64,000 bases of DNA from Gibbula magus (Eukaryota; Mollusca; Gastropoda; Trochida; Trochidae), in NCBI GenBank assembly GCA_936450465.1, contig OW388297.1:50882630-50946629 (forward strand), given 5' to 3'. Below are positions 829-56,934 of the stretch, piece after piece. The notes under the pieces are model-generated. The model worked only from the letters and a program-made list of their open reading frames with translations. It was not told the origin of the DNA and did not search any database. Made by a program: the position numbers and the translations under genes. Each line of letters opens with the position of its first letter. Position 1 is the first letter of the stretch.

Positions 829-832
829 TACT

Positions 833-4032: not shown

Positions 4033-4311
4033 CATATTCGAAATGCCTGTACTGTTTGGGAAACAGACGAAATGATTACTGCCTGGACTTGCCACTACCT
4101 TCCCGCACTCAAAGCTTTCATCGAAGGACTGGTGATTGACTCACGGAAAAAGACAAGCGAGTGTACGGACACTCGTCCGAAGAAACCTCCAAGAAATAAG
4201 ATATCGGTAGATGCACTACGTTGTGACTTTGATTCATCGGCATACGTCGATTTTACTCAGACTGACGCCTACGTAAATTGTTACATAGGAAGCCAACAGG
4301 AGTATATTTAG
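4033..4311 (+). CDS. Unrecognised open frame with protein-like composition
   Basis: The frame is open from 4033 to a stop at 4309-4311; the first ATG is at 4072 (79 codons plus stop). The translation has a basic middle (RKKTSECTDTRPKKPPRNK) and an acidic, tyrosine-rich end (DSSAYVDFTQTDAYVNCY). I do not recognise the family. The composition is less AT-driven than its neighbours, which suggests coding origin, perhaps a fragment of a mobile-element protein or a retrocopy. It lies on the strand opposite to the host gene and inside its span. Confidence 0.3.
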   Translation, partial: HIRNACTVWETDEMITAWTCHYLPALKAFIEGLVIDSRKKTSECTDTRPKKPPRNKISVDALRCDFDSSAYVDFTQTDAYVNCYIGSQQEYI

Positions 4312-7149: not shown

Positions 7150-7465
7150 CAGTTCGCATGATGGCCGAGAGGGGACATCGCTCTTTCGCCCTCTGGCAAC
7201 AACGCGATAAAGCGATAAAGCGATATGGACACGCGACAAAGCGATATAGCAACACGAAAAAGCGATAACATCGAATGACAAAGCGATAGTGTCGCACGAC
7301 AAAGCGATAAGGCCGCACGACACAGCGATAAGGAGGCACAACAAAGCGATATTGCCGCACAACAAAGCGATAAAAACATTTCGCTTTATCGCTCTTTCGC
7401 TTTATCGCTCTTTCGCTTTATCGCTTTATCGCTCTATCGCTCTTTCGCTCTTTCGCTTTGTCGCC
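7150..7465 (-). repeat. Composite minisatellite, copy 1 (21-mer plus 8-mer arrays)
   Basis: A flank containing GCCGAGAGGGGACATCGCTC is followed by about eight units of 21 bp (each with a GACAAAGCGAT-type core, about 7205-7370). Next comes an array of 8-bp units of the type CGCTTTAT / CGCTCTTT (about 7377-7455). In this copy the 8-mers run in the opposite orientation to the 21-mers. The same flank and both arrays recur, inverted, at 17670-18485. Open frames in all phases here are a product of the repeat, not genes. Confidence 0.85.
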
Positions 7466-11144: not shown

Positions 11145-11194
11145 TATGTGTCTATGTGTCTATGTGCATAGGCATATGTACATGTACATAGACT

Positions 11195-14100
11195 ATCATA
11201 ATTACAAAAACATAAATAACCCAAAAGCAAGAGAGGTTATACTAGCATTTATCGAAGAGTACAATAGTATTGATCCGTGGCGTTATTTAAATCCGGACAG
11301 AAAGCGATATACTTGGAGACAAACAAAACCTATAAAACAGTCTAGATTAGATTTTTTCCTATTGTCTAGAGACCTAGAACCATCCATTGAAAATGCACAT
11401 ATTAAACCTGCATACAAATCAGACCACTCAGTAACCTGGGTCAATTTGAAACTAAAGGATGTTGAAAGAGGTAAAGGTTTTTGGAAATTCAACAACTCAC
11501 TACTGTATGATACAATATATGTTGAAGAAGTTAAGAACATAATAAATAACACAAAAAAACAATACCAAATAGGATCAGATGATAAAGGAAACGTGTTGTT
11601 GGAAATTAATGATCAACTGTTTTTCGAAACCTTACTAGTCATGATAAGAGGTTTTACAATTAAATATTCATCGGAGCGCAAACGAGAGCGGGAAAAAAAC
11701 GAAAAGGAACTTTGCAAAACCCTCGAGGATTTAAACAGAAACCTCGACGAGGCCAACAACACTGTCGAAAAGCAGTTAATATTAAATGAAATAAATGACG
11801 CTAATCTTAAATTAGAAAAGATAAATAGTGTAAAAGCTGAAGGAGTGATAATAAGATCCAAATGCGAATGGAAAGAAAAAGGGGAAAAACCTACGAAGTA
11901 CTTTTTATCACTTGAGAAACGAAATTATGTCAATAAAGCTATATCAAAACTTCAAACAGAAGATAATAAAATCATAACTAACACAGAAGAAATAGTCAAC
12001 GAAACCAAATATTATTATAAAAACATCTATACAAAACAAACATGTTCGCCGGTCAATTTAGATGAGCTCTTTCAAAACTGTAAGGTCCCAAAACTCAGTG
12101 ACTTAGACAGAGATTCACTCGAAGGAGAACTAAAGTATAACGAAGTTCTGGAATCGAAAAAAGTCCCGGCCCGTCAGGCTTTACTGTAGAATTTTTCAAA
12201 TTTTTTTGGTTGGACTTGCATGCCTACTTAATTCGATCATTAAGCTTCGCTTATAAATCAGGAGAGTTATCCATTAGCCAGAAACAGGGTCAAATAACAT
12301 GTATACCCAAAAAGAATAAACAGAAACATTTTTTTAAAAATTGGAGACCGATATCCCTACTAAATGTATCTTATAAAATAGCATCTGCAACAATTGCCAA
12401 TAGAATAAAGAAAGTACTTCCGAAAATAATAAACGAAGACCAACGAGGTTTTATGGCAAATAGATACATCGGAGAATGCACGAGACAGATTTATGACATC
12501 ATCGAATATGCAGAGTGTTTGGAAATACCGGGTTTACTCCTGCTCATAGATTTTGAAAAAGCGTTTGATTCAGTAGACTGGACATTTTTACGAAAAGTTC
12601 TTGATTTTTTCAATTTTGGCCCTGCTATTAAAAACTGGATGGGTACATTTTATAAAAATATCAACTCTAGTGTTCTTGTAAATGGTTTCTCATCGGATTT
12701 CTTCCAAATTACCCGCGGGTGTAGACAAGGAGATCCACTTTCGCCATATTTATTTATTTTATGTGCTGAAATTCTAAGCATCATGATCCGTAATAATAAA
12801 AAGATAAAAGGAATTAAACTAGGTGACAGTGAGTACCTCGTAACTCAATTCGCAGACGATACTTCTTTGACACTGGGTGGATCCGAAACCTGTCTACAAG
12901 CGACACTACAAACATTAACTCAATACGCCTCTTTCTCGGGACTAAAAATAAATGCAAGTAAAACTCAAGTCATCTTGATAGGTTCCTTAAAGAATTCGAA
13001 AAAACACTGTGCAAAGACTACAAATTAGACTGGTCTAAAATAGAATTCACAATCCTTAGCATAACATTCACACATAACTTGGCAGAAATGGTAGAGAGAA
13101 ATTATAAAGATAAACTAAAACAAATAAAGATCATCATGAACCAATGGCTGGGAAGAGATCTTACTCCACTTGGTAGGACGACCGTTTTAAAAAGCCTTAT
13201 CCTGCCTAAATTAAACCAGATATTTACAATACTTCCAAATCCTAGTGAAAACATATTGAAGGACATTGAAAGACTTCGTTTTGCCTTTATTTGGAAAGGG
13301 AAACCAGATAAAATTAAACGTAAAATAATAACAAGTAATTATAATGAAGGTGGTTTTAGAGCACCCGATATAAGAAATACAATTTGTTCTCAGAAAATAA
13401 GTTGGGTGAAACGACTCTTCAATTCGGACAGCTGTTCTAATTTGAAGAAACTGTTTCATAAAAACGTATCCCCAACACACACTAACTTTTATCAATACAG
13501 CGCAGAAGAAGTGATGAAGCATGTTTGTAATCCAAGAACAAACGATTTTTCGAAAGACGTCTTAAAAGCATGGGGAATTCGAAGTTTCATTACCAAAAAG
13601 GGGAAACTTGTAAAGACCCAAGCTGATGTCCTGTCTCAGCCGATATGGAATAATGATAATATCAGAATTAACAATAAGGTGATTCATTATAAGCAAATGT
13701 CAAAATCAGGTATCTATCTGATAAATGATATAATCGATAGTGGTGGTAACTTTTATAACTACACAGAATTAGTTAACAGGTACAAATTTAAGACAAATTT
13801 TCTTGAACATGCTGGTATCATTAATGCAATAAAATCATATTTAGTAAAGTCAAACATTAGGATAGAGAAAAAAACTAGATATGCCACTAATACCTTATTT
13901 TATTGAAAATATTACTGGCAAGAGAAAAGGTTGTCGAATATTTTATGATATATTACAAGAATCAGAAATCACGGGGGTTAGCTACACATACAGAATGGAA
14001 TGGGAACGAGATTTGGAATGTCAAATCAACGAAACTGAATGGAAACATATAAACCAATTGCCTTTTATATCCAATCTAAGTTCAAAAACAAAATGGTTTC

Positions 14101-14690
14101 AATATTCAATTCTACATAGAACATTCCCGACAAATGATCTCCTGGATAAGATGAAAATCAAAGATGACAATAAATGTAGCTTCTGTGTGGACGAAATAGA
14201 GACCATAAGTCACCTTTTCTTTGAGTGTCCTACTGTCAAAAATATTTGGAATAAAGTTAAGGAATGGATAGAGACAAACACACAAGCAAACATAAACCTC
14301 TCAAAAAGGAATATTTGCCTTGGATATCCTGAATATAGAAACAAAGTATTGAATATGATCATCACAACTGTTAAGTACACATTATTCAAAACAAAGCAAA
14401 ATGGACTGAAACCAAACATAACCTACATCAAGAATGACATCAAGAAAGCTTACAATATTCATGTTGATATTCCTTTGTTTCACCTAAACTGAAAACCCTC
14501 AAAATCGATCGAATCTGAAGCTTGATTAGAACTAATGATGATGAGTAAATTGTTATACTCATCTCTGTTACCAGCTTCTGCCAAAGTGTTTGTATGCTTT
14601 TCGTTGTAAACAAATTTGTATATTTAATGAGCATGTACATGTACCACAAACAGAAATAAATAAAAAAAACTATAAAAAAACTATCTCTTT
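11195..14690 (+). pseudogene. 5'-truncated L1/Tx1-type LINE with three or more frameshifts
   Basis: The sequence starts inside the APE-type endonuclease; its C-terminal motifs SRLDFFLLS and SDHSVTWV are visible (about 11340-11450). A coiled, lysine/glutamate-rich linker follows (about 11640-11900). The reverse transcriptase domain (about 12290-12990) has NWRPISLLN, the GCRQGDPLSPYLF block and the catalytic FADD (12849-12860). The C-terminal zinc knuckle CSFC ... HLFFEC lies near 14176-14230, and the protein ends at 14492. Frame is lost near 12165 (an A-run), near 12995 and near 13870-13900. An A-rich tail with AATAAA lies around 14655-14685. Features are those of an APE-type non-LTR retrotransposon that copied itself by target-primed reverse transcription and has since decayed. 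Clade assignment (L1/Tx1) is from motif style only. Confidence 0.85.
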
Positions 14691-17669: not shown

Positions 17670-18485
17670 ACATGTCAATATCGCTCTTTAGCTCTTTCGT
17701 TATTTCGCTTTATCTCTCTTTCGCTCTTTCGCTCTTTCGCTTTATCGCTTTATCGCTTTATCGCTTTATCGCTCTTTCCCTTTATCGCTCTTTCGCTTTA
17801 TCGCTCTTTCGCTTTATCGCTTTATCGCTCTTTCGCTTTATCGCTTTATCGCTCTTTCGCTTTTTCGCTTTATCGCTCTTTCGCTTTTTCGCTTTATCGC
17901 TCTTTCGCTTTTTCGCTTTATCGGTCTTTCGCTTTATTGCTCTTTCGCTGTATCGCTTTATCGTGCTACTATATCGCTTTATCGCTTTAACGCTCTTTCG
18001 CTTTATCGCTCTTTCGCTTTTTCGCTCTTTCACTTTATCGCTCTATCGCTTTATCGCTCTTTCGCTTTATCACTCTTTCGCTTTATCGCTTTATCGCTCT
18101 TTCGCTTTATCGCTCTTTCGCTTTATCGCTACTATATCGCTTTATCGCTCTTTCGCTTTATCGCTCTTTCGCTTTATCGCTTTATCGCGTTTTATTATCG
18201 ATTTGTCGCGTTGTTATATCGCTTTGTCGTGTTGCCTTATCGCTTTGTCGTACGGCGTTATCGCTTTGTCGTGTAGCCTTATCGCTTTGTCGTGCGGCGT
18301 TATCGCTTTGTCGTGTGACCATTTCGCTTTGTCGTGCGGCGTTATCGCTTTGTCGTGTGACCATTTCGCTTTGCCGTATGGCTATATCGCTTTGTCGTGT
18401 GGCCATATCGCTTTGTCGTGTGGCAATGTCGCTCTTTCGCTTTATCGCGTTGTTGCCAGAGGGCGAAAGAGCGATGTCCCCTCTC
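17670..18485 (+). repeat. Composite minisatellite, copy 2 (8-mer plus 21-mer arrays)
   Basis: About 17675-18185 consists of 8-bp units (CGCTTTAT, CGCTCTTT, CGCTTTTT). About 18190-18430 consists of ten to eleven 21-bp units built on TATCGCTTTGTCGTG plus a variable six bases. The flank CGAAAGAGCGATGTCCCCTC follows and matches the copy at 7150 in inverted orientation. A period of 8 is not a multiple of 3 and lacks stop codons, so long open frames with Leu-Ser-Leu-Tyr/Phe-Arg repeats arise in every forward phase; I do not regard them as genes. Confidence 0.9.
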
Positions 18486-34264: not shown

Positions 34265-35395
34265 TAAAAATGTTAGTGGTTCCTCATTCTGCATATATTT
34301 ACTACATTTAGTGGTTCCTCATTCTGCATATATGTACTACATTAAGTGGTTCCTTATTCTGCATATATTTATAACATTTAGTGCTTCCTCATTCTGCATA
34401 TATTTATAACATTTAGTGCTTCCTCATTTTGCATATATTTACTACATTTAGTGGTTCCTTATTCTGCAAATATTTACATTAAGTGGTTCCTCATTCTGCA
34501 TATATTTATAACATTTAGTGCTTCCTCATTCTGCATATATTAATACATTTAGTGCTTCCTCATTCTGCATAAATTTACAACATTAAGTGGTTCCTCATTC
34601 TGCATATATTTAATACATTAAGTGGTGCCTGATTCGGCATATATTTCCTACATTTAGTCGTTCCTCATTCTGCATATATTTATAACATTTAGTCCTTCCG
34701 CGTTCGGCATATATTTACTACATTTAGTGATTCTTTATTCTGCATATATTTACAACTTTTAGTGCTTCCTCATTCTGCATATATTTATTACATTTAGTGG
34801 TTGCTCATTCGGTATATATTGAATACGTATAGTGGTTTCTCATTCTGCATATATTTAATACAATAAGTGGTTCCTCATTCTGCATATATTTATAACATTT
34901 AGTGCTTCCTCATTCTGCATATATTTACTACAATTAGTTCTTCCTCATTCGGCATATATTTACTACATTTAGTTCTTCCTCATTCGGCATATATTTACTA
35001 CATTTAGTGGTTCCGCATTCTGCATCCATTTACAACATTTAGTGGTTCCTAATTCGGCATATATTTACAAAACATTTAGTGGTTCCTCATTCTGCATATA
35101 TTTACAACATTTAATGGTTCCTCATTCTGCATATATTTACTACATTTAGTGCTTCCACATTCGGCATATATTTACTACATTTAGTGGTTCCTCATTCTGC
35201 ATACATTTACTACATTTAGTGGTTCTTAATTCTGTATATATTTACAACGTTTAGTGGTTCCTCATTCTGCATATTTACTAAATTTATTGGTTCCTCATTC
35301 TGCATATATTTAATACATTTAGTGCTTCCTCATTCTGCATAAATTAACAACATTTAGTGGTTCCTCATTCTGTATATATTTAATACATTTAGGGG
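34265..35395 (+). repeat. 35-bp minisatellite, about 32 units
   Basis: Tandem units of 34-37 bp with the core GTGGTTCCTCATTCTGCAT followed by an ATATTTACTACATTTA-type spacer. Variants replace GTGGTT with GTGCTT or TTCTGC with TTCGGC. Total about 1.13 kb. No gene overlaps it. Confidence 0.92.
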
Positions 35396-35591
35396 TCATG
35401 GTGATGAAAATTTAATTTCTAAATCCTGTCTTTATTAAACAAAGATATTTTCATAAGCATTTACCAGTCACCAATTAATTCATTCAAACTACTGAAGAAA
35501 TGTGTTCTTGTAATGACTAGTCGAAAACAATTACGGTGCGCATTTTCTTTTGAACTACAGTTTATATCAAAATAGTACAAACAAGTTAGTA

Positions 35592-44814: not shown

Positions 44815-44819
44815 ATGTT
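44815..44819 (+). repeat. Target site duplication, left (ATGTT)
   Basis: ATGTT directly precedes the first base of the left arm and recurs directly after the right arm. Five-base duplications fit a retroviral-type integrase. Confidence 0.85.
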
Positions 44820-44830
44820 AGTAGTAGGTT

Positions 44831-44893
44831 AGGGCACCTGCGACCTGCTAAGATATATCTTAGCCCCTCATCTTAGCAGGTCGCAGGTGCCCT
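44831..44893. repeat. Terminal hairpin, left tip
   Basis: A perfect 24-bp stem (44831-44854 with 44870-44893) and a 15-base loop start 11 bases from the element end. The stem contains GGGCACCTGCGACCTGC. The loop side includes a second short palindrome (CTAAGATATATCTTAG). The mirror copy lies at 56856-56918. Its position suggests a role in end recognition or replication, which is inference. Confidence 0.9.
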
Positions 44894-45029
44894 ATGAGAG
44901 AAATTTTGCTAAGGTCTTGTTCGTGGTAGAACCTTGAAACCTTGCTAAACTCGGGTTAGCTTGACCCTTTGAGTCCAGCAGTCGTGACCGATCAATATGG
45001 GTACAATAGGTTAATAGCTTAATTGCCCA

Positions 45030-46440
45030 ATTATCGACGCACCGTGCTCTGATCACTACAGGTATAATGGGTTAATTGACCAATTATTGTAGTCATGGGG
45101 TTTGGAGGGTTAAACGGACGTGTGCCGAGTCGCGTTAATATGAGTGTTTATTTTTCGGTGAGGAGGGGTCATTGTAGTCTTGGCTATCGTAACTACCGGT
45201 TTATAGACTTCTACATCAAGACATCAGGGGTGGTCCGTGTCGCTCATCACTCTTTGTAAGGAAGGTGTGTGTGACCAAGGCTAGCCTTAGCGCAAGCTCA
45301 AATGCAAATGACAACATCAACATGTGACCATGCAATCTGCATATTACTCTAGTATCGTCATCAAAATAAGTAAATAAAGTATGGCAGAGAATCGTGTTGA
45401 TTCAGAGCCAGCCGTATCGCGGCGTATCAATTAGGTAACATTCACATCTCTAATTATTTTCCCCTCTGGTGACAAATTTCAAGTTAACCGGTACAATATT
45501 TCCAAGAAATGTCATTGACGTGTCTTAAACGTCAAATTAAAATTAGGAGGCAAACTCTTGTGTCAATCTGACAATCATGTAGATTCAAAGTCCCAGTACA
45601 AGGTACATAATCTTCTTTGGACGATCAGCATAACTTAGCTCATCTTAGCAGTCACTAGTGTCAATTGGGAGGAAAGCTAAGGCGATTATCGAAGCAATGT
45701 GCTCTGATCAACACAGGTATAAGGGGTTAATTGACCAATTACTGTAGTCATGACTGTTCGGGTGGTAAACGGTCTTACACCGATTTACGTTAATTGGAGT
45801 GTTTATTTTTGGTGTGAACGTTGGTATTGTAGTCTTGGCTATCGTAACTACCGGTTTATATACCTCTACATCCAGGCATCAGGGGTGGGCCCGTATCGTT
45901 CATCACTCTTTGAAAGGAAGGTGTGTGACCATGGGTAGACTTAGCACATGCTCAATCTCAATCAACAACACCAAAATACGATCATACGATCTGCGTATTA
46001 CTCTAGTATCGTCATCAAACTAAGACAATAAAGTATGGCAGATAATCGTGCTGATTCAAAGCGAGCCGTGTCGCGTCTTATCAATTAGGTAGCATTCACA
46101 TGTCTAAATGTTTTCCCCCTCTAGGGCCAAATTTTGAATTTTACCGGTACACCATTTTAAAGAAATGCCATTGAAGTGCCGTTACCTCGTACATACAAAC
46201 GATGTGTTTTAATTATTTCGTCAGTAAGCGATTAAGACATAATGACATAGCTATGAAATGTAATATAATGACGTAATGGAAATTGTTATTGGTCATCAAA
46301 ACAATAATGATATAGGAACCGGATTGTATCAAGTTTCAACGTCAAATTAAAATAAGAAAACAAGGTTCCATGTCAGTTTCCCAGTCATGTAGATTTAAAG
46401 TCATAATACTGTTACATTATCTTCTTTTGACGAACAATTT
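45030..46440 (+). repeat. Diverged tandem duplication inside the arm
   Basis: Unit 1 (about 45030-45625) and unit 2 (about 45685-46440) align over most of their length: GTGCTCTGATCA, TTGACCAATTA, TGTAGTCTTGGCTATCGTAA, CTACCGGTTTATA, CATCACTCTTTG. The small open frames here are not conserved between the units, so the region is unlikely to code. Mirror at 55309-56719. Confidence 0.8.
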
Positions 46441-46815
46441 CAGTTTTGAAATCACCCTTTGCCTTTTCATAGCAGGGATTATTAACTTCGAGCAAACGCC
46501 GTATTTTTCATTAACTTGAACACATTAGTATTAGCTGAATATACATAGGTTTCATAACAACAACAAAAACCACATAATTTAATGTCCAATTCCAAATTCC
46601 TTTACGACTGTTTTAATCTCCGATGACCCCACCCGGCAAGGGGTGTGTTAATGGTAACGGGCTAACTATCTGATTGTACATTGATTCACGTATAATCTCT
46701 GTATAGGTGTCAACGTGTCGCACGCTTATAAGCGGACTATAGGCTCAAGACTTATTAACTCAACGGGCCGATTTCATTGAAAATAGAAAAAATGGTCATG
46801 TTATGTAATGTGACG

Positions 46816-47265
46816 TATCAATTACATGTAACTCACGTGCCATCGGGCCAGTGGGAAGGGGACCTATCGATCAACTATAGACTCAGTACAGATTACTACC
46901 GTTTCAAGACTCAGTAACTCCACGGGATGATTTCATTGATAAGGGGTATCAATTAGCACCCGTACTTGGCATCGCGCAGAGGGAGGGGGGTCCTGTCAAT
47001 TACGTATAGTCTCAGTATAGATCACTACCAGGTTCCAAAATCAGTAACCCCCCTTATAGGATGATCTCATTGAAAAATAGAAATTATCGTCTGCCGTGAC
47101 GTTGGGTATCAATTAGCTCACGCACTATCGCGCAGTGGGGAGGGTACCTGACAAATACGCATAGGTTTAGTATAGCTGACTATATGTTTAAGGCTCATAA
47201 ACTCAACGGGACGATTTCATTGACAACTAAAAATACCGACTGGCGTGTCGTGGTGTATCAATTAG
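46816..47265 (+). repeat. Iteron-like repeats around TATCAATTAG
   Basis: TATCAATTA(G/C) occurs at 46816, 46947, 47107 and 47256, spaced 131-160 bp, each within a longer diverged unit. Each unit also has a GGGACGATTTCATTGA-type block and an ACTCAGTA/CTATAG-type block. Two more copies of the decamer are at 45425 and 46079 in the preceding duplication. Mirror at 54484-54933. Confidence 0.75.
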
Positions 47266-47869
47266 CTAGCGTGACATCTCTTTATATTAGCTATTGACCA
47301 TGCATGTAATGATATAACGGCGCACCTGTCGCGTGGTTAACACCTGCTCGCGAGTGTCAATCTGACCTTGCATATTCGTGAGCTTACTTTTGACGATTCA
47401 ATAAGAGACGATATTTAAACAATCACAGAAACAACACAACAAATTGAGGTCATTTAACGATATTTATTTAGACAAACAAGGAAGCAAATCAAATTCATTC
47501 CACTACAAACGATAGCATTTGGACATCGCATCAATGCATTTTCAGTTATTTTATTCTCAAAAGAAAACGTTTGACAATGCAACCATATTGTTTCAGGACA
47601 TATTCATGGGGTGTACACGTTTGTTGAACAGAAATATAGGGCCGTTTAACTATTTATTGATACGATGTCATCCTATTTCACTACTGCTCCGTATAACATC
47701 TCTATAGCTACCGGGATGGGTTGGATAGTAAATAACTCTCTTTAAATAGTGTTCGTATGGAGTCATCTCTGCTTCAGATTATGGATTATACAATTGCGTT
47801 GCAACTTCTGTCTTAGATACATACTCGTGATTATTCTTCAGGTTCACTACATCCCCTAAAATTTAGGAA

Positions 47870-48145
47870 CTTTATGGGAATTATTTTCTGGAAATTTCAT
47901 TAACCATTTCTTGAAATAATGTAAACCAATTTTCAAAACCGACCTTTGACGGATTTGTATAATTCCGAAGAATGGATCTTATAGTACATGTCGATAAATT
48001 TCTGGGAATTATTTTCTCGAAATGTTACATTGTAGAAGTCTCTTTCATTAACCATTTCTTGAAATAATGAAAACCAATTTTCAAAACCGACCTTTGACGG
48101 ATTTGTATAATTCCTAAGAATGGAGCGTATACCACATGTCGATAC
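47870..48145 (+). repeat. Tandem duplication of about 135 bp inside the arm
   Basis: Two units share GGGAATTATTTTCT, CATTAACCATTTCTTGAAAT and CCGACCTTTGACGGATTTGT. The second unit has an extra GTTACATTGTAGAAGTCTCT segment. Mirror at 53604-53879. Confidence 0.85.
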
Positions 48146-48589
48146 TCTCGCTACACCGTCACGATATTCAATTAACTACACGTAGATGTTTAGATCTATA
48201 CAAAACAAATCAAAACTCACCGACACTCATACTACAAGAATTGTTATTACAAAATGTAAATCACAGTTAAGTAGATATTCTCAAATATCCATTTCAATCA
48301 GTTCTTAAAGTTTTCAGGTTGGTTTGAATGAATGGTGACCATTCACATGGTTTAGGATATAGTTATCCCTTATTCCTTTTCAGTCAAAGTTACTTTAATC
48401 GAAACACGTCTGAACAGTTCTGTGTAACAGAATAATAACTTCACTACAATTTGTCAAATCTGTCCCTGCTGAAATATAATCATTTCGTATGTGATGTGTT
48501 CGCACCATGTATTTACTATAAATATCCGGATTGAGTGCATACAGTGGAGGGTATATAAGAAGTGACCATGAACGTATCAGGTAATAACC

Positions 48590-49042
48590 ATGAGGCTGGG
48601 ACATATCAATAGATCTCTTCTAAAGTTTCCACAGATTTTTCGCTTATTAATTGGCGGTCCAAGTGGGGCTGGAAAAACTACGTTTGTAAGAAATCTTCTA
48701 GCTAATGAAATTGATGGTTCATGGTCACTTCTTGAAGGCTTGCCTTCAGTTATAATATGGGTATTTTCAGAGAAACAGCCCTTGTATGAAGAAATCCAGA
48801 ATTTATGCATAAAAGCTGGTATTGAAATACATTTCGTTGACAATATTGTAGATACCGACAATTTAATTGATCCTAATGGTTACAGCTGGTTAGTTGTAGA
48901 CGACGCAGCTGGTGATCTTACTAAGGATAGTGAACGTGAACTACTCAAATGGTTTGTGAAAAGATCGCATCATAGACAAACCTCAATTATTTATATACAA
49001 CAGAATATTTTTGCAAAGACTATTTTTCCACATGACAGCTAA
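48590..49042 (+). pseudogene. Truncated ATPase gene copy in the left arm
   Basis: The first 144 codons are identical to the ATPase in the right arm, including the Walker A motif GGPSGAGKT and the Walker B stretch LVVDDA. The match ends exactly at the inner edge of the arm (49021), after codon 144. Six unrelated codons and a stop follow. It lacks the C-terminal part of the ATPase fold and is best seen as a by-product of the inverted duplication. As the upstream sequence is the same as that of the intact gene, it could still be transcribed. Confidence 0.9.
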
Positions 49043-49308
49043 TCTTTCACGATTTCACCATCCTTATGAACTGTTTCGTGAACAGGAGTTGTTACATGTA
49101 TAGAGAAAATATTTAGGGGTGAAGATAAGTTGTTCCAGGTTACCGGTACTTGAATAGAACTAATGCCGACTTTCCACATATTTCTATCTAATTTTAAGGG
49201 GTGGGGTAGACTTACAGTGTAAGAATGCTGAGTATTATCAGGCTTGGTGGTAGGATTAGCATCACTCGGTAGTGTAACATAAAAACTGTCCTTTTCACTA
49301 AAATCCAT
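49039..49308 (-). CDS. Truncated possible virion protein (89 aa)
   Basis: Starts MDFSEKDSFYVTLPSDA and contains MWKVGISSIQVPVTWNN. I recall this N-terminal pattern (FYVTLPS ... W-x-VG(L/I)-x-x-IQ-x-P) from longer uncharacterised invertebrate proteins that accompany integrases of the F54H12.3 type; this is memory, not a search. The frame stops at 49039, 17 bases before the arm junction at 49021, and the last residues look unrelated. The gene therefore appears cut by the event that created the left arm. A beta-rich structural role is conceivable but unproven. It is the last gene of the minus-strand cluster, 15 bp after the membrane protein gene. Confidence 0.5.
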   Translation of the reverse strand: MDFSEKDSFYVTLPSDANPTTKPDNTQHSYTVSLPHPLKLDRNMWKVGISSIQVPVTWNNLSSPLNIFSIHVTTPVHETVHKDGEIVKD

Positions 49309-49323
49309 CGTTGATTGTTTGTA

Positions 49324-49527
49324 TCATGTGAAATTGCCATACAAGAGTAGTGGCCTGGATGGTGAGGAGGTTAGATGGTCTAATAAATGATAAAGTACTC
49401 TGTGTACCCTTTTTATGGTTTTTGCATCGCTATCACCAATGCTGGTACTCAATGACATATATGTACTACATCCAATTATCAGTGAAATTACAACTAATAC
49501 ACCAAGGTGTACCGAGAATCTTTTCAT
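49324..49527 (-). CDS. Small single-span membrane protein (67 aa)
   Basis: The ATG at 49527 overlaps the integrase stop codon as TAATG, which favours this start over an upstream ATG at 49584. The peptide begins MKRFSVHLG, followed by a hydrophobic segment (about residues 6-24, VHLGVLVVISLIIGC), then a polar, His/Leu/Ser-rich tail. One transmembrane span or an uncleaved signal anchor is predicted by inspection. I do not recognise the family. Its place between integrase and the truncated possible structural gene suggests a virion or membrane role, but this is inference. Confidence 0.5.
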   Translation of the reverse strand: MKRFSVHLGVLVVISLIIGCSTYMSLSTSIGDSDAKTIKRVHRVLYHLLDHLTSSPSRPLLLYGNFT

Positions 49528-50726
49528 TACACTATACATGTTTCTGGCAACCACTGGTCGAACGTTTTCGGATACCCCTTCCATCGTACAAGGATTTCTT
49601 TAACACCCGTTTCCTTGTTTACGCGTCTTTTCTCGATTTTCTCAATTTCATATGCTGCGGGCTCTGTAACAGGTTGTAGCTCCGGTGCGTAAAATGTCCC
49701 TCTGATCTCATCACCTGCATAATCTCTCAATTTATACACGACTGGGGTCCGGTATTTAACATGTCTTATGACATAAAATATTTCCCTTGTCCAATTCGCT
49801 TCGTATCCTTTTCCAAAACTTCCCTTACCAGTTGATATTCTCACAGGAGTTCCTGGGGGTAAAAGTGCGTGTTCGACTCTGCTGGTATGTTTCTTAGCGC
49901 TTAGCTGCTTCTGATATTGCATAAAATCCCACACGGCTATTTCATGGTGGGGTGTCTGCACAGATGCTGGTTTGCAATTAATCGATGAGTGACGGGTGTT
50001 GTTATAACTTTTAACAAGGCTTGGTAATATTTCAATAAACCGTGGTTTGTCTACTGTTGTTAAATATCTCCATAATTTTGTTTTCAGAGTCCTCTGAAAT
50101 CTTTCAATAACGCCGCATTTGGTATCGTCATTTTGACTTGTGTAAAATGTTTTACCAAGATGGTGGGCAATGTATTTCTTAAATGTTTTATTATTGAATT
50201 CCCCTCCCTTATCACTCATCAGACTATCAAATAATCGGGGATGAGCCTTCTTTACAATACGCTGGAATCCCTGTGTTACACTATCAGCCGATTTATTTTT
50301 AACTGGTTCTACCCAGGCATATTTGCTAAACACATCAATAACACAAAGTAGGTATTTGTATCCAGAATTTATTTTGGAAAGGCTCGTTACATCTGACAAA
50401 TCTGCTTGCCATAGTTGATCTTTGCGACAGACGGTTGAACTGTAGGGAGTTCTTTCAAAATGTTTGCGCCGGGGTAAATGTAAGGAATAAGCGGGTTGGG
50501 CTCTTATCCACTTACGAAGTTGATGAGGGTTGGGCTTTATACTTCCTTTCTTTATCTTCGCTTCCTGCACACCATTAAGCAAGTTTTCATAACTCGTAAA
50601 TCCCTTATTTGCAGAGTAATATGTCTTCTTTAACCATTTTCTCCAGTATGGTTTAATAGTTCTTCCAGCTTTTCCCCTTTTCTCTTTTGGTTTTCGCTGT
50701 TTGATACCTGTTTTGTACATATTCAT
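49527..50726 (-). CDS. Retroviral-type integrase with C-terminal chromodomain (DD35E)
   Basis: 399 residues. It joins element ends to target DNA and would make the 5-bp duplication seen here. The catalytic core (about residues 100-255) has D109 in QADLSDV, D172 in MSDKGGEF and E208 in CGVIERFQRTLK, with 35 residues between the last two. The N-terminal part (WRKWLKKTYYSANKGFTSYENL) is the region typical of F54H12.3-like and Polinton integrases. Residues 359-397 (YEIEKIEKRRVN ... VRWKGYPKTFDQWLPE) form a chromodomain, which probably guides integration to chromatin. The reading frame is intact. The first 74 bases overlap the preceding 309-aa gene, so the true start may be a little further in. 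No reverse transcriptase, gag or LTR is nearby, which rules out a retrovirus. Confidence 0.93.
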   Translation of the reverse strand: MNMYKTGIKQRKPKEKRGKAGRTIKPYWRKWLKKTYYSANKGFTSYENLLNGVQEAKIKKGSIKPNPHQLRKWIRAQPAYSLHLPRRKHFERTPYSSTVCRKDQLWQADLSDVTSLSKINSGYKYLLCVIDVFSKYAWVEPVKNKSADSVTQGFQRIVKKAHPRLFDSLMSDKGGEFNNKTFKKYIAHHLGKTFYTSQNDDTKCGVIERFQRTLKTKLWRYLTTVDKPRFIEILPSLVKSYNNTRHSSINCKPASVQTPHHEIAVWDFMQYQKQLSAKKHTSRVEHALLPPGTPVRISTGKGSFGKGYEANWTREIFYVIRHVKYRTPVVYKLRDYAGDEIRGTFYAPELQPVTEPAAYEIEKIEKRRVNKETGVKEILVRWKGYPKTFDQWLPETCIV

Positions 50727-51582
50727 CTGGAGAATCTGACGATGTCGCTCGATAATCTGCGTTCTTTATAGCAGTTCGAGCATACGGATGGTCCCCCATC
50801 ATATCGCTTACAATTTCAGCTCCTCCAATTTTCTTAGTTTTTCCTGCAGAAGCTTTCTTCCGTCTTACAAGTTCATACAATATTGAATCAATAGGGTCAC
50901 CTCCTGGGCTAGTGTCAGTACCGAACCTGAGATTGCCTGCTGCACTTACACCAAGCTCCTTACTTTCGTTAATGAATGAAGCAATTTTACGGCCGTCTTT
51001 CTGATATGTCCGTGGTAAATTACTTACAGCATTATCCAAAATAGTCATTTCAGAGCTGGGACTAAGGCGACGGTGTAAGCCCTGTAAATTAGCCAGTCGG
51101 TAATCTGACCAATTCAATCGTTGCGGTACTTGATCTCCAGCCATATGACTTGTTGGTGTAGTAAACATATCATCTAAAGGTGCTTGCGCTACTTGATTAG
51201 GCGTAACTAGTCTTTTACCATCATCACTGTCTATTCTTTCACCATCACTGTCTAATCTTTCACCATCAGTATCGTACGTTTGTACATCTTTATCAACGAC
51301 TATCTTAGATTTGTTTGAAATCATAGGTAGCGACTTTGTAAGAATTGGTTGCATTTCAATCGCCCTTGACTGTTTCTGTAAATCAAGTGCTTCTTCAAGA
51401 AGTTTATTATAATGATCAATCTTCTTATGGAGATTTGGCTCATGTGTTACCTGATTAATTTCGCGTAAATTACCAACGCGTTGCCGTTGAAGTAAAGCAT
51501 TTCTTTCTAAACTGTTACCCTTATTTTTATCCAGTAACCTATTATAGGAAACCTCCGGTAAAACTATTAGTCTGCTAGCCAT
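50653..51582 (-). CDS. Unrecognised 309-aa protein of the Polinton-like cluster
   Basis: Starts MASRLIVLPEVSYNRLL. A helical, probably coiled region follows (about residues 45-75, HEPNLHKKIDHYNKLLEEAL). Next is an acidic repeat (DTDGERLDSDGERIDSD, about 104-120), a middle with WSDYRLANLQGL, and a Gly/Lys-rich part (RRKKASAGKTKKIGGAEI) ending in a basic tail. No enzyme motif is visible. Mixed charge, low complexity and place between a small basic protein and the integrase suggest a structural or assembly protein. The frame is intact. Its end overlaps the integrase gene by 74 bp. Confidence 0.65.
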   Translation of the reverse strand: MASRLIVLPEVSYNRLLDKNKGNSLERNALLQRQRVGNLREINQVTHEPNLHKKIDHYNKLLEEALDLQKQSRAIEMQPILTKSLPMISNKSKIVVDKDVQTYDTDGERLDSDGERIDSDDGKRLVTPNQVAQAPLDDMFTTPTSHMAGDQVPQRLNWSDYRLANLQGLHRRLSPSSEMTILDNAVSNLPRTYQKDGRKIASFINESKELGVSAAGNLRFGTDTSPGGDPIDSILYELVRRKKASAGKTKKIGGAEIVSDMMGDHPYARTAIKNADYRATSSDSPDEYVQNRYQTAKTKREKGKSWKNY

Positions 51583-51643
51583 TTGGTTTGTATGAGTTCT
51601 ATGTAATGTCCTTATTTTATTATCACTTAAGAGACGAATGAGC

Positions 51644-52012
51644 TTAATTAAAAACCCCGACTATCTTCGATACAAGTCCTGTCACAAGTGGTGCCAAAAC
51701 GGGTAACAAGAATGGTAATATACCGCCCTTTTGTGTTTAAATCTTTTTCCTTGTATCGTTTGATAAGTGCTTTTTCTGACAAAGCAAATGTAGTTTCCGT
51801 CTATGTGTGTTCAATTTATTTCTCTGAGTAGGTGTCATAGGAACATTACCCGCGTAGATATTAATAGCTGCTTCACTGAACGCATCGAGAACCTGCTTAG
51901 GTAGACTATTTATCACCCTAGTTCTAATTGCTGGTGTTGCCCTACACAAGTAATGTATGATATCAGCATTTTGTTTTACTTTATTTCCACATCGTCGTAC
52001 TCGCCCTGACAT
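51644..52012 (-). pseudogene. Small basic protein interrupted by an in-frame stop
   Basis: The ATG lies two bases after the stop of the acidic-protein gene. The first 91 codons give a strongly basic helical protein (MSGRVRRCGNKVKQN ... NKLNTHRRKLHLLCQKK). A TAA at 51737-51739 ends it, but the same frame stays open for another 31 codons to 51644. That extension starts with a Lys-Gly-Gly motif and is almost entirely hydrophobic. A basic body, a Gly-Gly site and a hydrophobic tail recall small minor virion proteins of adenovirus/Polinton-type viruses that are processed by a cysteine protease; this comparison is inference. The stop may be a decay mutation, a sequencing error or a readthrough site. 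Confidence 0.6.
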
Positions 52013-52014
52013 TA

Positions 52015-52464
52015 TTACTGATTGCTCCGATTAAGCCACGATCTCGGAGGAGGTATTGGAGGTAATGACGTCGTTGTTCGTGTTACTCCCTTTTTGTAAC
52101 CCTTTGAATTAGAAAGCCGTGGTTTCTTTAAGATAGCTGACCGTTCATACTGAGTAAAGTGATCTTGCTGATCATCAGAGCTACTGTCGTCTGAATCGGT
52201 TTCGGTTTCATATTCAGATGAACTGTCTACGAAATTATATCTGGTAGATGATTTGTGGTCAGGATTGATATGTTTTTCGTCTTCGCAATACTGTTCATAA
52301 TTTGTTTCATATGAACTGTCGGATGTTAGTGTATCGCTATTACTAGACGAGTAAGTAAGAGTGTCATCACTACTACAGGTATCATTTTGAGTTGCATGTC
52401 TACTTTTATCGAGAGATATACAACCCATATTATCTATTCTCTCAAAACTATCATTCAGATTCAT
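52015..52464 (-). CDS. Acidic Ser/Asp-rich protein (149 aa)
   Basis: The start codon overlaps the ATPase stop as ATGA. The protein is dominated by Ser, Asp, Glu and Tyr through about residue 105 (SSDDTLTYSSSNSDTLTSD, EYETETDSDDSSSDD), then turns basic and ends with a Pro-rich motif (SLPPIPPPRSW). It is probably disordered. No family was recognised. Such acidic proteins often act as chaperones or scaffolds for basic structural proteins; here the basic small protein is encoded right after it. Confidence 0.65.
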   Translation of the reverse strand: MNLNDSFERIDNMGCISLDKSRHATQNDTCSSDDTLTYSSSNSDTLTSDSSYETNYEQYCEDEKHINPDHKSSTRYNFVDSSSEYETETDSDDSSSDDQQDHFTQYERSAILKKPRLSNSKGYKKGVTRTTTSLPPIPPPRSWLNRSNQ

Positions 52465-53159
52465 GGTTTAGGAATGTAGATATCTATTTCTCCGTGCGGA
52501 CGATTGAACAGGTTTGCTCGAACTCTAAAATCATCTGGTATTGTCGGAGTTAGGTCGAGCATTAAATAGGTGTGTGGTGATGTGGTAGCTTTATGAAAAG
52601 CGTCCCTAATAAACTTTGTTTTCCCGGGGAAGATTTGTCTCGCTAGATTTTCAACCTGGGTTTTGTCTCGAGGATTTTTATATACTACAATATGCGTACA
52701 GTTAAGACTTATTGTTCTATGAAATGGAGTCTTTGCAAAAATATTCTGTTGTATATAAATAATTGAGGTTTGTCTATGATGCGATCTTTTCACAAACCAT
52801 TTGAGTAGTTCACGTTCACTATCCTTAGTAAGATCACCAGCTGCGTCGTCTACAACTAACCAGCTGTAACCATTAGGATCAATTAAATTGTCGGTATCTA
52901 CAATATTGTCAACGAAATGTATTTCAATACCAGCTTTTATGCATAAATTCTGGATTTCTTCATACAAGGGCTGTTTCTCTGAAAATACCCATATTATAAC
53001 TGAAGGCAAGCCTTCAAGAAGTGACCATGAACCATCAATTTCATTAGCTAGAAGATTTCTTACAAACGTAGTTTTTCCAGCCCCACTTGGACCGCCAATT
53101 AATAAGCGAAAAATCTGTGGAAACTTTAGAAGAGATCTATTGATATGTCCCAGCCTCAT
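52461..53159 (-). CDS. Packaging-type ATPase (A32/FtsK-HerA-like)
   Basis: 232 residues. Walker A GGPSGAGKT (residues 22-30), Walker B LVVDDA (101-106), then SIIYIQQNIF, a sensor-type strand with Gln, and a C-terminal block with HRTISLNCTHIVVYKNPRD and ARQIFPGKTKF. This order fits the genome-packaging ATPases of Polintons, adintoviruses and relatives, which drive DNA into capsids. The gene starts inside the right arm; its last 89 codons lie in the core, which is why only the first 144 codons are duplicated in the left arm. The 3.7 kb upstream is the non-coding part of the arm and should hold the promoter of the cluster. Intact frame. Confidence 0.9.
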   Translation of the reverse strand: MRLGHINRSLLKFPQIFRLLIGGPSGAGKTTFVRNLLANEIDGSWSLLEGLPSVIIWVFSEKQPLYEEIQNLCIKAGIEIHFVDNIVDTDNLIDPNGYSWLVVDDAAGDLTKDSERELLKWFVKRSHHRQTSIIYIQQNIFAKTPFHRTISLNCTHIVVYKNPRDKTQVENLARQIFPGKTKFIRDAFHKATTSPHTYLMLDLTPTIPDDFRVRANLFNRPHGEIDIYIPKP

Positions 53160-56100
53160 GGTTATTACCTGATACGTTCATGGTCACTTCTTATATACCC
53201 TCCACTGTATGCACTCAATCCGGATATTTATAGTAAATACATGGTGCGAACACATCACATACGAAATGATTATATTTCAGCAGGGACAGATTTGACAAAT
53301 TGTAGTGAAGTTATTATTCTGTTACACAGAACTGTTCAGACGTGTTTCGATTAAAGTAACTTTGACTGAAAAGGAATAAGGGATAACTATATCCTAAACC
53401 ATGTGAATGGTCACCATTCATTCAAACCAACCTGAAAACTTTAAGAACTGATTGAAATGGATATTTGAGAATATCTACTTAACTGTGATTTACATTTTGT
53501 AATAACAATTCTTGTAGTATGAGTGTCGGTGAGTTTTGATTTGTTTTGTATAGATCTAAACATCTACGTGTAGTTAATTGAATATCGTGACGGTGTAGCG
53601 AGAGTATCGACATGTGGTATACGCTCCATTCTTAGGAATTATACAAATCCGTCAAAGGTCGGTTTTGAAAATTGGTTTTCATTATTTCAAGAAATGGTTA
53701 ATGAAAGAGACTTCTACAATGTAACATTTCGAGAAAATAATTCCCAGAAATTTATCGACATGTACTATAAGATCCATTCTTCGGAATTATACAAATCCGT
53801 CAAAGGTCGGTTTTGAAAATTGGTTTACATTATTTCAAGAAATGGTTAATGAAATTTCCAGAAAATAATTCCCATAAAGTTCCTAAATTTTAGGGGATGT
53901 AGTGAACCTGAAGAATAATCACGAGTATGTATCTAAGACAGAAGTTGCAACGCAATTGTATAATCCATAATCTGAAGCAGAGATGACTCCATACGAACAC
54001 TATTTAAAGAGAGTTATTTACTATCCAACCCATCCCGGTAGCTATAGAGATGTTATACGGAGCAGTAGTGAAATAGGATGACATCGTATCAATAAATAGT
54101 TAAACGGCCCTATATTTCTGTTCAACAAACGTGTACACCCCATGAATATGTCCTGAAACAATATGGTTGCATTGTCAAACGTTTTCTTTTGAGAATAAAA
54201 TAACTGAAAATGCATTGATGCGATGTCCAAATGCTATCGTTTGTAGTGGAATGAATTTGATTTGCTTCCTTGTTTGTCTAAATAAATATCGTTAAATGAC
54301 CTCAATTTGTTGTGTTGTTTCTGTGATTGTTTAAATATCGTCTCTTATTGAATCGTCAAAAGTAAGCTCACGAATATGCAAGGTCAGATTGACACTCGCG
54401 AGCAGGTGTTAACCACGCGACAGGTGCGCCGTTATATCATTACATGCATGGTCAATAGCTAATATAAAGAGATGTCACGCTAGCTAATTGATACACCACG
54501 ACACGCCAGTCGGTATTTTTAGTTGTCAATGAAATCGTCCCGTTGAGTTTATGAGCCTTAAACATATAGTCAGCTATACTAAACCTATGCGTATTTGTCA
54601 GGTACCCTCCCCACTGCGCGATAGTGCGTGAGCTAATTGATACCCAACGTCACGGCAGACGATAATTTCTATTTTTCAATGAGATCATCCTATAAGGGGG
54701 GTTACTGATTTTGGAACCTGGTAGTGATCTATACTGAGACTATACGTAATTGACAGGACCCCCCTCCCTCTGCGCGATGCCAAGTACGGGTGCTAATTGA
54801 TACCCCTTATCAATGAAATCATCCCGTGGAGTTACTGAGTCTTGAAACGGTAGTAATCTGTACTGAGTCTATAGTTGATCGATAGGTCCCCTTCCCACTG
54901 GCCCGATGGCACGTGAGTTACATGTAATTGATACGTCACATTACATAACATGACCATTTTTTCTATTTTCAATGAAATCGGCCCGTTGAGTTAATAAGTC
55001 TTGAGCCTATAGTCCGCTTATAAGCGTGCGACACGTTGACACCTATACAGAGATTATACGTGAATCAATGTACAATCAGATAGTTAGCCCGTTACCATTA
55101 ACACACCCCTTGCCGGGTGGGGTCATCGGAGATTAAAACAGTCGTAAAGGAATTTGGAATTGGACATTAAATTATGTGGTTTTTGTTGTTGTTATGAAAC
55201 CTATGTATATTCAGCTAATACTAATGTGTTCAAGTTAATGAAAAATACGGCGTTTGCTCGAAGTTAATAATCCCTGCTATGAAAAGGCAAAGGGTGATTT
55301 CAAAACTGAAATTGTTCGTCAAAAGAAGATAATGTAACAGTATTATGACTTTAAATCTACATGACTGGGAAACTGACATGGAACCTTGTTTTCTTATTTT
55401 AATTTGACGTTGAAACTTGATACAATCCGGTTCCTATATCATTATTGTTTTGATGACCAATAACAATTTCCATTACGTCATTATATTACATTTCATAGCT
55501 ATGTCATTATGTCTTAATCGCTTACTGACGAAATAATTAAAACACATCGTTTGTATGTACGAGGTAACGGCACTTCAATGGCATTTCTTTAAAATGGTGT
55601 ACCGGTAAAATTCAAAATTTGGCCCTAGAGGGGGAAAACATTTAGACATGTGAATGCTACCTAATTGATAAGACGCGACACGGCTCGCTTTGAATCAGCA
55701 CGATTATCTGCCATACTTTATTGTCTTAGTTTGATGACGATACTAGAGTAATACGCAGATCGTATGATCGTATTTTGGTGTTGTTGATTGAGATTGAGCA
55801 TGTGCTAAGTCTACCCATGGTCACACACCTTCCTTTCAAAGAGTGATGAACGATACGGGCCCACCCCTGATGCCTGGATGTAGAGGTATATAAACCGGTA
55901 GTTACGATAGCCAAGACTACAATACCAACGTTCACACCAAAAATAAACACTCCAATTAACGTAAATCGGTGTAAGACCGTTTACCACCCGAACAGTCATG
56001 ACTACAGTAATTGGTCAATTAACCCCTTATACCTGTGTTGATCAGAGCACATTGCTTCGATAATCGCCTTAGCTTTCCTCCCAATTGACACTAGTGACTG

Positions 56101-56929
56101 CTAAGATGAGCTAAGTTATGCTGATCGTCCAAAGAAGATTATGTACCTTGTACTGGGACTTTGAATCTACATGATTGTCAGATTGACACAAGAGTTTGCC
56201 TCCTAATTTTAATTTGACGTTTAAGACACGTCAATGACATTTCTTGGAAATATTGTACCGGTTAACTTGAAATTTGTCACCAGAGGGGAAAATAATTAGA
56301 GATGTGAATGTTACCTAATTGATACGCCGCGATACGGCTGGCTCTGAATCAACACGATTCTCTGCCATACTTTATTTACTTATTTTGATGACGATACTAG
56401 AGTAATATGCAGATTGCATGGTCACATGTTGATGTTGTCATTTGCATTTGAGCTTGCGCTAAGGCTAGCCTTGGTCACACACACCTTCCTTACAAAGAGT
56501 GATGAGCGACACGGACCACCCCTGATGTCTTGATGTAGAAGTCTATAAACCGGTAGTTACGATAGCCAAGACTACAATGACCCCTCCTCACCGAAAAATA
56601 AACACTCATATTAACGCGACTCGGCACACGTCCGTTTAACCCTCCAAACCCCATGACTACAATAATTGGTCAATTAACCCATTATACCTGTAGTGATCAG
56701 AGCACGGTGCGTCGATAATTGGGCAATTAAGCTATTAACCTATTGTACCCATATTGATCGGTCACGACTGCTGGACTCAAAGGGTCAAGCTAACCCGAGT
56801 TTAGCAAGGTTTCAAGGTTCTACCACGAACAAGACCTTAGCAAAATTTCTCTCATAGGGCACCTGCGACCTGCTAAGATGAGGGGCTAAGATATATCTTA
56901 GCAGGTCGCAGGTGCCCTAACCTACTACT
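52728..56929 (-). repeat. Right inverted arm, 4,202 bp
   Basis: Inverted copy of 44820-49021. It contains the first 144 codons of the intact ATPase gene and then about 3.77 kb without a credible gene, but with the tandem duplications, the TATCAATTAG repeats and the tip hairpin in mirror order. The exact length match and identical translations of three separate open frames indicate very recent duplication or ongoing gene conversion. Confidence 0.95.
56856..56918. repeat. Terminal hairpin, right tip
   Basis: Mirror image of 44831-44893: a perfect 24-bp stem with a 15-base loop, 11 bases from the right end. Confidence 0.9.
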
Positions 56930-56934
56930 ATGTT
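56930..56934 (+). repeat. Target site duplication, right (ATGTT)
   Basis: ATGTT directly follows the right terminus CCTACTACT and equals 44815-44819. Confidence 0.85.

What the first reader, a model, noticed from the sequence alone, without database searches (positions are those of the whole stretch)
44820..56929. Polinton-like element with two identical 4.2-kb inverted arms and intact 5-bp target duplications
Most of this 12.1-kb element is a giant inverted repeat: 4,202 bp on each side of a 3,706-bp core, with zero net length difference and identical translations wherever compared. Polinton TIRs are normally far shorter relative to the element. The clean ATGTT duplication shows that it entered the genome through an integrase. 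Perfect arms imply very recent formation or active homogenisation.
Basis: partly seen in the sequence, partly recalled or inferred. Interest (0 to 1): 0.88.

Follow-up and report, generated by a model that had tools for sequence, protein, structure and literature searches.

The report
Polinton with one end duplicated inversely
In a marine snail genome, a virus-like jumping element lost one of its ends and carries an exact inverted copy of the other end instead; several other self-mirrored copies in the same genome suggest that these elements are copied and rearranged outside the chromosome before they insert.

Summary
Window 44820-49021 and the reverse complement of 52728-56929 match at 4202/4202 bases, with ATGTT at both edges.

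The arms are not ordinary Polinton TIRs. The element is a defective derivative of a young family. PolB-bearing kin of 17.4-18 kb exist; TIR 334 bp in the C2 copy. A more numerous PolB-less subfamily carries their right-end sequence on both sides, at six mapped loci with six different 5-bp duplications. In the window copy the capsid half and its end were replaced by an inverted copy of the ATPase-side end, joined through 21 nt found nowhere else.

It is not alone. Of nine other elements fetched without regard to structure, three carry inverted duplications, two of them with 99.9-100% identical repeats. A further copy, chosen for its inverted ATPase pair, is a 9,615-bp palindrome mismatched only in a 7-nt centre.

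Best explanation: copy-back or inverted end-joining of linear extrachromosomal replicas, then integration. New variant of a known kind. Homogenisation is unnecessary; an assembly fold-back is unlikely.

The parts
44815..44819 (.). left copy of target-site duplication ATGTT
   Evidence: 5-bp duplications also in the nine fetched copies
56930..56934 (.). right copy of target-site duplication ATGTT
44820..49021 (+). left inverted arm, 4202 bp, copy of the ATPase-side end; stands where kin have the capsid half and their other end
   Evidence: 4202/4202; maps
52728..56929 (-). right inverted arm, 4202 bp
44830..44894 (+). terminal hairpin inside the TIR, just inside an (AGT)2 terminus; mirrored at 56855-56919
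   Evidence: fold z-score -8.89, 0 of 200 shuffles as good; self match 11-75
45030..46178 (+). two subterminal repeats about 655 bp apart (45030-45522 and 45685-46178, 82% alike); mirrored in 55571-56719
44820..47554 (+). arm nt 1-2735, same sequence as the R (BIR-side) end of the PolB-bearing C2 copy, inverted; mirrored at 54195-56929
   Evidence: 2735 columns, 98.8%
47554..48464 (+). arm nt 2735-3645, non-coding segment shared with PolB-less copies, no match in the PolB-bearing C2 copy
48590..49042 (+). truncated ATPase reading frame (150 aa), cut at the junction
49022..49042 (.). 21-nt filler at the left arm/core junction, absent from the fetched kin and single in the genome at up to 1 mismatch
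49039..49308 (-). 89-aa frame whose first 88 residues match the start of a 324-aa gene of full copies; cut at the junction
   Evidence: no Pfam name; 'penton-like' is from recall
49324..49584 (-). 86-aa open frame, present in kin
49527..50726 (-). integrase, 399 aa, rve core plus chromodomain
   Evidence: PF00665 1.4e-9, PF00385 7.4e-7
50653..51582 (-). 309-aa open frame, no Pfam match
51737..52012 (-). 91-aa open frame, no Pfam match
52015..52464 (-). 149-aa open frame, no Pfam match
52461..53159 (-). complete A32-like (packaging-type) ATPase frame, 232 aa
   Evidence: PF04665 Pox_A32 1.8e-5, over its cut-off; relatives

Best explanation
The element is an integrated defective Polinton (Maverick/adintovirus-like) genome. 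A linear extrachromosomal replica of the PolB-less subfamily lost its capsid half and one end. The broken or stalled strand was joined to, or copied back along, the same or a sister molecule in inverted orientation, which gave a 12.1-kb linear DNA with the same functional end on both sides. Integrase, its own or from kin, then inserted it with a 5-bp duplication. PolB must come from PolB-bearing kin. Shown: perfect arms, TSD, a junction seen once, kin with and without PolB, several different inverted-duplication copies, one of them a palindrome. Inferred: that the rearrangement preceded insertion, that replication is protein-primed and extrachromosomal, and copy-back versus sister end-joining, which the data do not separate.
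For: (1) Arms 4202/4202 identical, while fetched kin differ from the arm's first 2.2-2.7 kb by 25-36 mismatches plus gaps (eight of nine), so both arms stem from one molecule or its replicas. (2) The same pattern elsewhere: inverted repeats 1999/1999 in C18:29.87M; 2263/2263 and 1273/1274 in C9:42.3M; 4804 of 4807 pairs in the C17:9.46M palindrome. (3) 5-bp TSD in the window, the nine fetched copies (C4 only if an extra ACT is counted to its right end), the C17:9.46M palindrome and two PolB-bearing copies: 13 of 13 elements whose two ends were read. (4) Both ends are of the same type, beyond the TIR, in the window and C17:9.46M. C12 and C18 look alike at both ends too, but there the call rests on 151-480 bp inside the TIR. 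(5) 13 joins in C12, C18 and C9 have 0-4 nt microhomology (11) or 1-2 nt inserts (2) (the remaining C9 joins were left out). (6) PolB-less copies carry the R-end sequence of PolB-bearing kin on both sides and sit at six loci with six different TSDs, so end-replaced molecules do move. (7) C12 and the window are identical over core 226-3706 and arm 3001-4202 yet rearranged differently, as expected of sibling molecules from one pool. (8) Ends begin (AGT)2, the motif linked to jumping-back in protein-primed replication (PMC8097293); PolB-bearing kin exist.
Against: No extrachromosomal form was seen. The window junction was matched at one place only, so this very derivative is not shown to have transposed after it formed. 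Six of the nine unselected kin are collinear, not inverted. The 21-nt filler fits end-joining better than simple copy-back. Repeats in C12 (98.4-99.4%) and C7:32.07M (98.3%) are not identical, so a one-molecule origin is not shown for those two. C9 has two different end pieces and complex joins. The origin of the 911-bp arm segment 2735-3645 is unexplained.
Confidence: 0.72

Rival explanations
1. In-place rearrangement: a full element inserted first; a later double-strand break in its capsid half was repaired by gene conversion or break-induced replication that started in the shared TIR, copied 4.2 kb inward from the other end and finished by end-joining.
For: TIRs of about 450 bp or more give the homology needed. 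A 21-nt filler at the inner junction fits end-joining after synthesis. The TSD would stay intact. The window junction is seen once.
Against: It would have to happen independently at several loci and each time leave both ends and the TSD whole. A 9,615-bp palindrome with a 7-nt centre and no match to the integrase, major capsid or PolB parts is hard to make this way. End-replaced PolB-less copies at six loci with different TSDs show that such forms exist before insertion.
Confidence: 0.2
2. Assembly or sequencing artefact: a fold-back read or a mis-resolved repeat made the mirrored arms.
For: Zero mismatches are what a fold-back gives; the raw reads were not examined here. Many near-identical copies exist.
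Against: Flanks are unrelated (20.5% when folded) and carry a matching TSD. Different inverted structures with their own TSDs stand at other loci.
Confidence: 0.05
3. A stable long-TIR (Foldback-like) subfamily in which 4.2-kb TIRs are a selected, inherited feature.
For: Long, internally repeated arms resemble Foldback and Galileo elements, where TIR dynamics are documented (PMC3573991, passages).
Against: The junction is single among 40 scored matches of 110 candidates; it cuts two genes; the six collinear copies have TIRs of about 450-1000 bp.
Confidence: 0.03

Closest known systems
Polinton/Maverick elements and Adintoviridae-like animal viruses
   Same: rve-chromodomain integrase, A32-like ATPase, (AGT)2 end motif; kin in the same genome add a 454-aa capsid protein whose homologue P0152 (59% identical) folds as a double jelly roll, and some add PolB (PF03175).
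   Different: The window copy lacks PolB, the major capsid gene and most of the 324-aa gene; arms 4.2 kb; TSD 5 bp, whereas intact vertebrate Mavericks have 6 bp (PMC8097293, passages).
Symmetric or palindromic defective genomes of adenoviruses and copy-back defective genomes (recalled; no paper on them read here)
   Same: Linear genome in which one end is replaced by an inverted copy of the other.
   Different: Here integrated in an animal genome with target duplications, several different forms in one genome; interference not tested.
Foldback/Galileo long-TIR transposons
   Same: Long, internally repetitive inverted arms; dynamic TIR length (PMC3573991, passages).
   Different: [quoted passage not shown] here the long arm is a one-off in a self-replicating type of element.
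Mu killer of maize
   Same: Partial inverted duplication of a transposon gene with copies of its TIR (PMC3440606, start of abstract in the listing).
   Different: No transcript or small-RNA data here; the window element is inserted with a TSD.

Membership tests
Polinton/Maverick (including adintovirus-like) | rve-type integrase | tested here: met
   PF00665 1.4e-9 and chromodomain 7.4e-7 in 49527-50726
Polinton/Maverick (including adintovirus-like) | A32-like packaging ATPase | tested here: met
   PF04665 1.8e-5
[quoted passage not shown]
   No PolB-sized frame in the window element; present in kin C2:66.23M (1272 aa, PF03175 1.7e-36); PolB within 12 kb of 2 of 40 integrase hits
Polinton/Maverick (including adintovirus-like) | double-jelly-roll major capsid protein | tested here: not met
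   That segment is absent from the window element. Kin carry it (L021, 454 aa); the homologue P0152 folds with pLDDT 86.5 and hits PBCV-1, Sputnik, mavirus and adenovirus capsid proteins
Polinton/Maverick (including adintovirus-like) | terminal inverted repeats with short tandem end motif | tested here: met
   AGTAGT start at both ends of the window element and of the nine fetched copies; repeat lengths (in C9 no inverted end pair of 100 bp or more)
Polinton/Maverick (including adintovirus-like) | 6-bp target-site duplication | tested here: not met
   5 bp in the window, nine fetched copies, C17:9.46M, C2:66.23M and C10:59.86M
Copy-back defective genome | both ends are the same parental end, derived from one molecule | tested here: met
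   4202/4202; end type
Copy-back defective genome | exists as a replicating extrachromosomal DNA dependent on a helper | not testable with these tools
   no reads or DNA fractions available
Copy-back defective genome | interferes with the helper | not testable with these tools
   needs expression or abundance data
Foldback transposon | long inverted arms inherited by a family of copies | tested here: not met
   window junction single among 40 scored of 110 candidates
Mu killer-like silencing locus | read-through hairpin RNA and small RNAs | not testable with these tools
   no RNA data

The most novel reading that the evidence does not exclude
The genome holds a two-level parasite system. PolB-less Polintons outnumber and depend on PolB-bearing kin, and they in turn shed copy-back and palindromic defective genomes that are integrated in trans: natural, germline-preserved counterparts of defective interfering DNA genomes. 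They record extrachromosomal, strand-displacing replication of Polintons in an animal, and their inverted repeats could feed hairpin RNAs that silence the family.
Probability: 0.3. Interest if true: 0.82.

Novelty: new variant of a known kind. Interest (0 to 1): 0.62.

Why it matters
Whether animal Polintons pass through a free, linear, virus-like replicative form was open to two 2021 papers (PMC7805220: extracellular form not yet detected; PMC8097293: particles not observed; starts of abstracts in the listing; later work may differ). Recent copies with one end duplicated inversely, with their own target duplications, are the products expected of such a form and make the question testable by reads and DNA fractions. 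They also suggest PolB-less copies spreading on the polymerase of PolB-bearing kin, and give inverted repeats that could start silencing.

Tried and rejected
Rejected: ordinary TIRs (kin TIRs 334 bp to about 1 kb). Rejected: propagated long-arm subfamily. Unlikely: fold-back artefact (flanks, TSDs, other loci). Led nowhere: viral-contig scans for the integrase, the ATPase and an ATPase alignment; PDB sequence searches with the capsid and its alignment, and only weak, generic P-loop hits for the ATPase alignment; Rfam and tRNA scans of the window; origin of the 911-bp arm segment (its genome probe did not complete). A genome probe of the terminus did not complete. The R end of the PolB-bearing C18:9.88M copy, and both ends of the C2:28.88M relative, were not found in the stretches fetched. 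Paper searches: in the listings I saw (titles and starts of abstracts) nothing on inverted-end or palindromic Polintons: searches (30 of 109 listed; 20 of 138; 15 of 205; 15 of 26; 10 of 29; 10 of 13; 12 of 12) on adenovirus forms gave nothing used. The library holds open-licence PMC papers only, so earlier reports are not excluded. Changed on re-checking: the window is not an unselected copy, so 3 of 9 replaces an earlier 4 of 10; same end type is firm for two elements, not four; confidence lowered from 0.75 to 0.72 and the in-place rival raised from 0.17 to 0.20 for that reason.
Full report
OBSERVATION. The two arms are 4202/4202 identical and ATGTT stands at both outer edges; the sixth base does not match. 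The pair is by far the longest inverted repeat of the window. The element is 12,110 bp: arm, 3,706-bp core, arm. Folding the 200-bp flanks on each other gives 20.5% identity, so the mirror symmetry stops at the element's ends.

HOST. The genome search places the window at C9:50882630-50946629 of an assembly of 1,470,318,725 bp in 140 contigs. Total length and the lengths of ten contigs seen (2, 4, 5, 6, 7, 9, 10, 11, 12, 17) match the published Gibbula magus assembly xgGibMagu1.1 to the printed digit; chromosome 18 differs by 0.01 Mb, and the paper counts 151 scaffolds (PMC10394393, passages). This is an inference from sizes. That paper describes 35-fold HiFi data, hifiasm, 10X polishing and Hi-C.

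GENES. On the minus strand the core and right arm hold: ATPase (PF04665), 149-aa, 91-aa and 309-aa frames without Pfam matches, integrase (PF00665 plus PF00385), an 86-aa frame, and an 89-aa frame that is the start of a gene cut at the junction. The rest of the arm shows no long reading frame. It holds a terminal hairpin (z -8.9) and two subterminal repeats 655 bp apart. The left arm holds the start of the ATPase again, cut at the junction.

KIN IN THE GENOME. An integrase probe gave 40 scored matches of 76 candidates, all at 98% or more, 14 at full score. I fetched the surroundings of 10 further full-score hits, in order of the list, not by structure (nine elements); three full-score hits were not fetched. 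Six of the nine are collinear, 13.2-13.6 kb (C4:74.85M, C5:33.57M, C6:2.74M, C6:82.73M, C11:63.25M, C17:10.05M). Beyond the window's junction they carry a 324-aa gene (its first 88 residues match the window's 89-aa frame; 'penton-like' by recall), a 117-aa frame, a 454-aa capsid protein, a 133-164-aa frame (protease by recall, no Pfam match over cut-off) and a 173-aa frame with a BIR domain (5.1e-21) (frames read in two copies; Pfam for one). Capsid: 211 homologues among 8000 scored, 120 listed, several named F54H12.2-like. The homologue P0152 (59% identical) folds as a double-jelly-roll capsid protein with hits to PBCV-1, Sputnik, mavirus and adenovirus capsids; viral library.

POLB. Frame lists of the C6:82.73M copy and of parts of two others show no PolB-sized frame, and no PolB place lies within 12 kb of the integrase hits of the six collinear copies. 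A PF03175 search finds many PolB genes in the genome (144 matches; 79 of 193 candidates scored). A nucleotide probe from one PolB found 12 places (12 of 12 candidates scored), 87-100% identical. PolB lies within 12 kb of 2 of the 40 integrase hits (the capped list, compared by eye, shows no others). The copy at C2:66227570-66245624 is 18,055 bp, TSD ATATA, with a 1272-aa PolB frame; C10:59854673-59872072 is 17.4 kb, TSD TACCT. The C2 TIR is 334 bp at 99.7%. Its BIR-side end is a 2.7-kb stretch equal to window arm 1-2735 (98.8%); the C10 copy has the same stretch with a gap (94-97%), and the PolB-side ends of C2, C10 and C18:9.88M agree with each other (96.8-99.9%). PolB-less copies carry the BIR-side stretch on the ATPase side too, where PolB and its end stand in PolB-bearing kin. 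I infer that the PolB-less subfamily is itself an end-replaced derivative; it occurs at six mapped loci with six different TSDs.

THE WINDOW JUNCTION. Left arm and core meet through 21 nt absent from the fetched kin and single in the genome at up to one mismatch. A 300-nt probe across it matches fully only at the window; the other 39 of 40 scored matches (110 candidates) cover 149-155 nt of one side. Two genes are cut. It is therefore a private rearrangement, not a family trait.

OTHER INVERTED FORMS. Three of the nine unselected elements carry inverted duplications: C9:42.3M, C12:56.37M, C18:29.87M. Inverted repeats are 1999/1999 in C18, 2263/2263 and 1273/1274 in C9 (plus a direct repeat 2082/2082), but only 98.4-99.4% in C12. 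C17:9458416-9468030, fetched because one search showed an inverted ATPase pair there, is a 9,615-bp palindrome: 4,804 of 4,807 position pairs complementary, the three mismatches inside a 7-nt centre; TSD GAGTC; flanks 26% alike when folded. It shows no match to the integrase, major capsid or PolB parts of kin, so it presumably moved in trans. C7:32.07M, fetched for an inverted capsid-probe pair, holds an inverted repeat of 2507 columns at 98.3% that runs to the edge of the stretch (ends not fetched). By ATPase and capsid probes 28 of 40 integrase hits look collinear; of the other 12, four (in three elements: window, C12, C9:42.3M) show inverted probes, two are a direct pair, two are PolB-bearing copies without an ATPase hit in the capped list, three lack a probe hit, and one is only wide in spacing. 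This overestimates order, since C18 passes although it is rearranged elsewhere. Thirteen joins in C9, C12 and C18 have 0-4 nt microhomology (11) or 1-2 nt inserts (2). The other joins of C9, one with 85 nt between matched parts, were not analysed.

TARGET DUPLICATIONS. 13 of 13 elements with both ends read have 5-bp duplications: window, nine fetched copies, C17:9.46M, C2:66.23M, C10:59.86M. In C4 this holds only if an extra ACT is counted to the right end.

AGE. Zero differences over 4202 bp bounds the age of the duplication at about 71,000-357,000 years (95%) for assumed rates of 5e-9 to 1e-9 per site and year (the rates are assumptions, not measured in this snail).

MECHANISM. Kin differ from the first 2.2-2.7 kb of the window arm by 25-36 mismatches plus gaps (eight of nine), so both arms come from one molecule or its replicas. 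The same end on both sides plus an intact TSD is most simply explained by rearrangement of a linear free molecule before insertion; the end type is firm beyond the TIR in the window and C17:9.46M, weak in C12 and C18. C12 and the window are identical over core 226-3706 and arm 3001-4202, yet rearranged differently, as sibling molecules of one pool would be. Ends start with (AGT)2; such repeats are linked to jumping-back in protein-primed replication (PMC8097293, Discussion part 1). Copy-back of a displaced strand and end-joining of sister fragments both fit; the palindrome favours fold-back, the filler favours end-joining. In-place gene conversion remains possible for any single locus, less so for the set.

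NOVELTY. Inverted-end and palindromic defective genomes are recalled from adenoviruses; long-TIR dynamics are described for Galileo (PMC3573991, passages). The listings of my searches (partly shown lists, open-licence library) named no paper on this in Polintons. I rate it a new variant of a known kind.

Noticed in passing
L037 3416-8000 and L038 1-5030 (C17:9458416-9468030): 9,615-bp palindrome of the same family, mismatched only in a 7-nt centre, TSD GAGTC, no match to integrase, major capsid or PolB parts.
   Followed up: yes
L029/L030 (C2:66227570-66245624): PolB-bearing 18-kb relative with a 1272-aa PolB frame; PolB lies near only 2 of 40 integrase hits, so PolB-less copies dominate among them.
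   Followed up: partly
L021:4032-4553: Kin encode a 173-aa frame with a BIR (inhibitor of apoptosis) domain, 5.1e-21; possibly captured from a host.
   Followed up: no
L020:5226-5585: One PolB-less copy carries a 120-aa frame that resembles a C2H2 zinc finger by eye, not found in the window element; no Pfam match.
   Followed up: partly
C9:64911319 and C9:64913755: Two integrase hits in the same orientation 2.4 kb apart, probably a direct internal duplication in another copy; not fetched.
   Followed up: no
window 47554-48464: 911-bp non-coding arm segment shared by PolB-less copies, with no match in the PolB-bearing C2 copy; origin unknown.
   Followed up: partly
window 5412-6416: Open Tc1/mariner-type transposase frame (DDE_3 over cut-off, HTH_Tnp_Tc3_2 below it).
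   Followed up: partly
window 10031-11075: Mos1/mariner-type transposase in two pieces (HTH_48, Transposase_1).
   Followed up: partly
window 11056-14489: Reverse transcriptase of non-LTR look in several frames (RVT_1 2.7e-36 in 12141-13025).
   Followed up: partly
window 7204-7457 and 17705-18433: Two arrays of 8-bp and 21-bp tandem units (TCGCTTTA and relatives), inverted to each other at up to 85%.
   Followed up: no
window 34273-35396: 35-bp tandem array, 32 copies, 85% matches.
   Followed up: no
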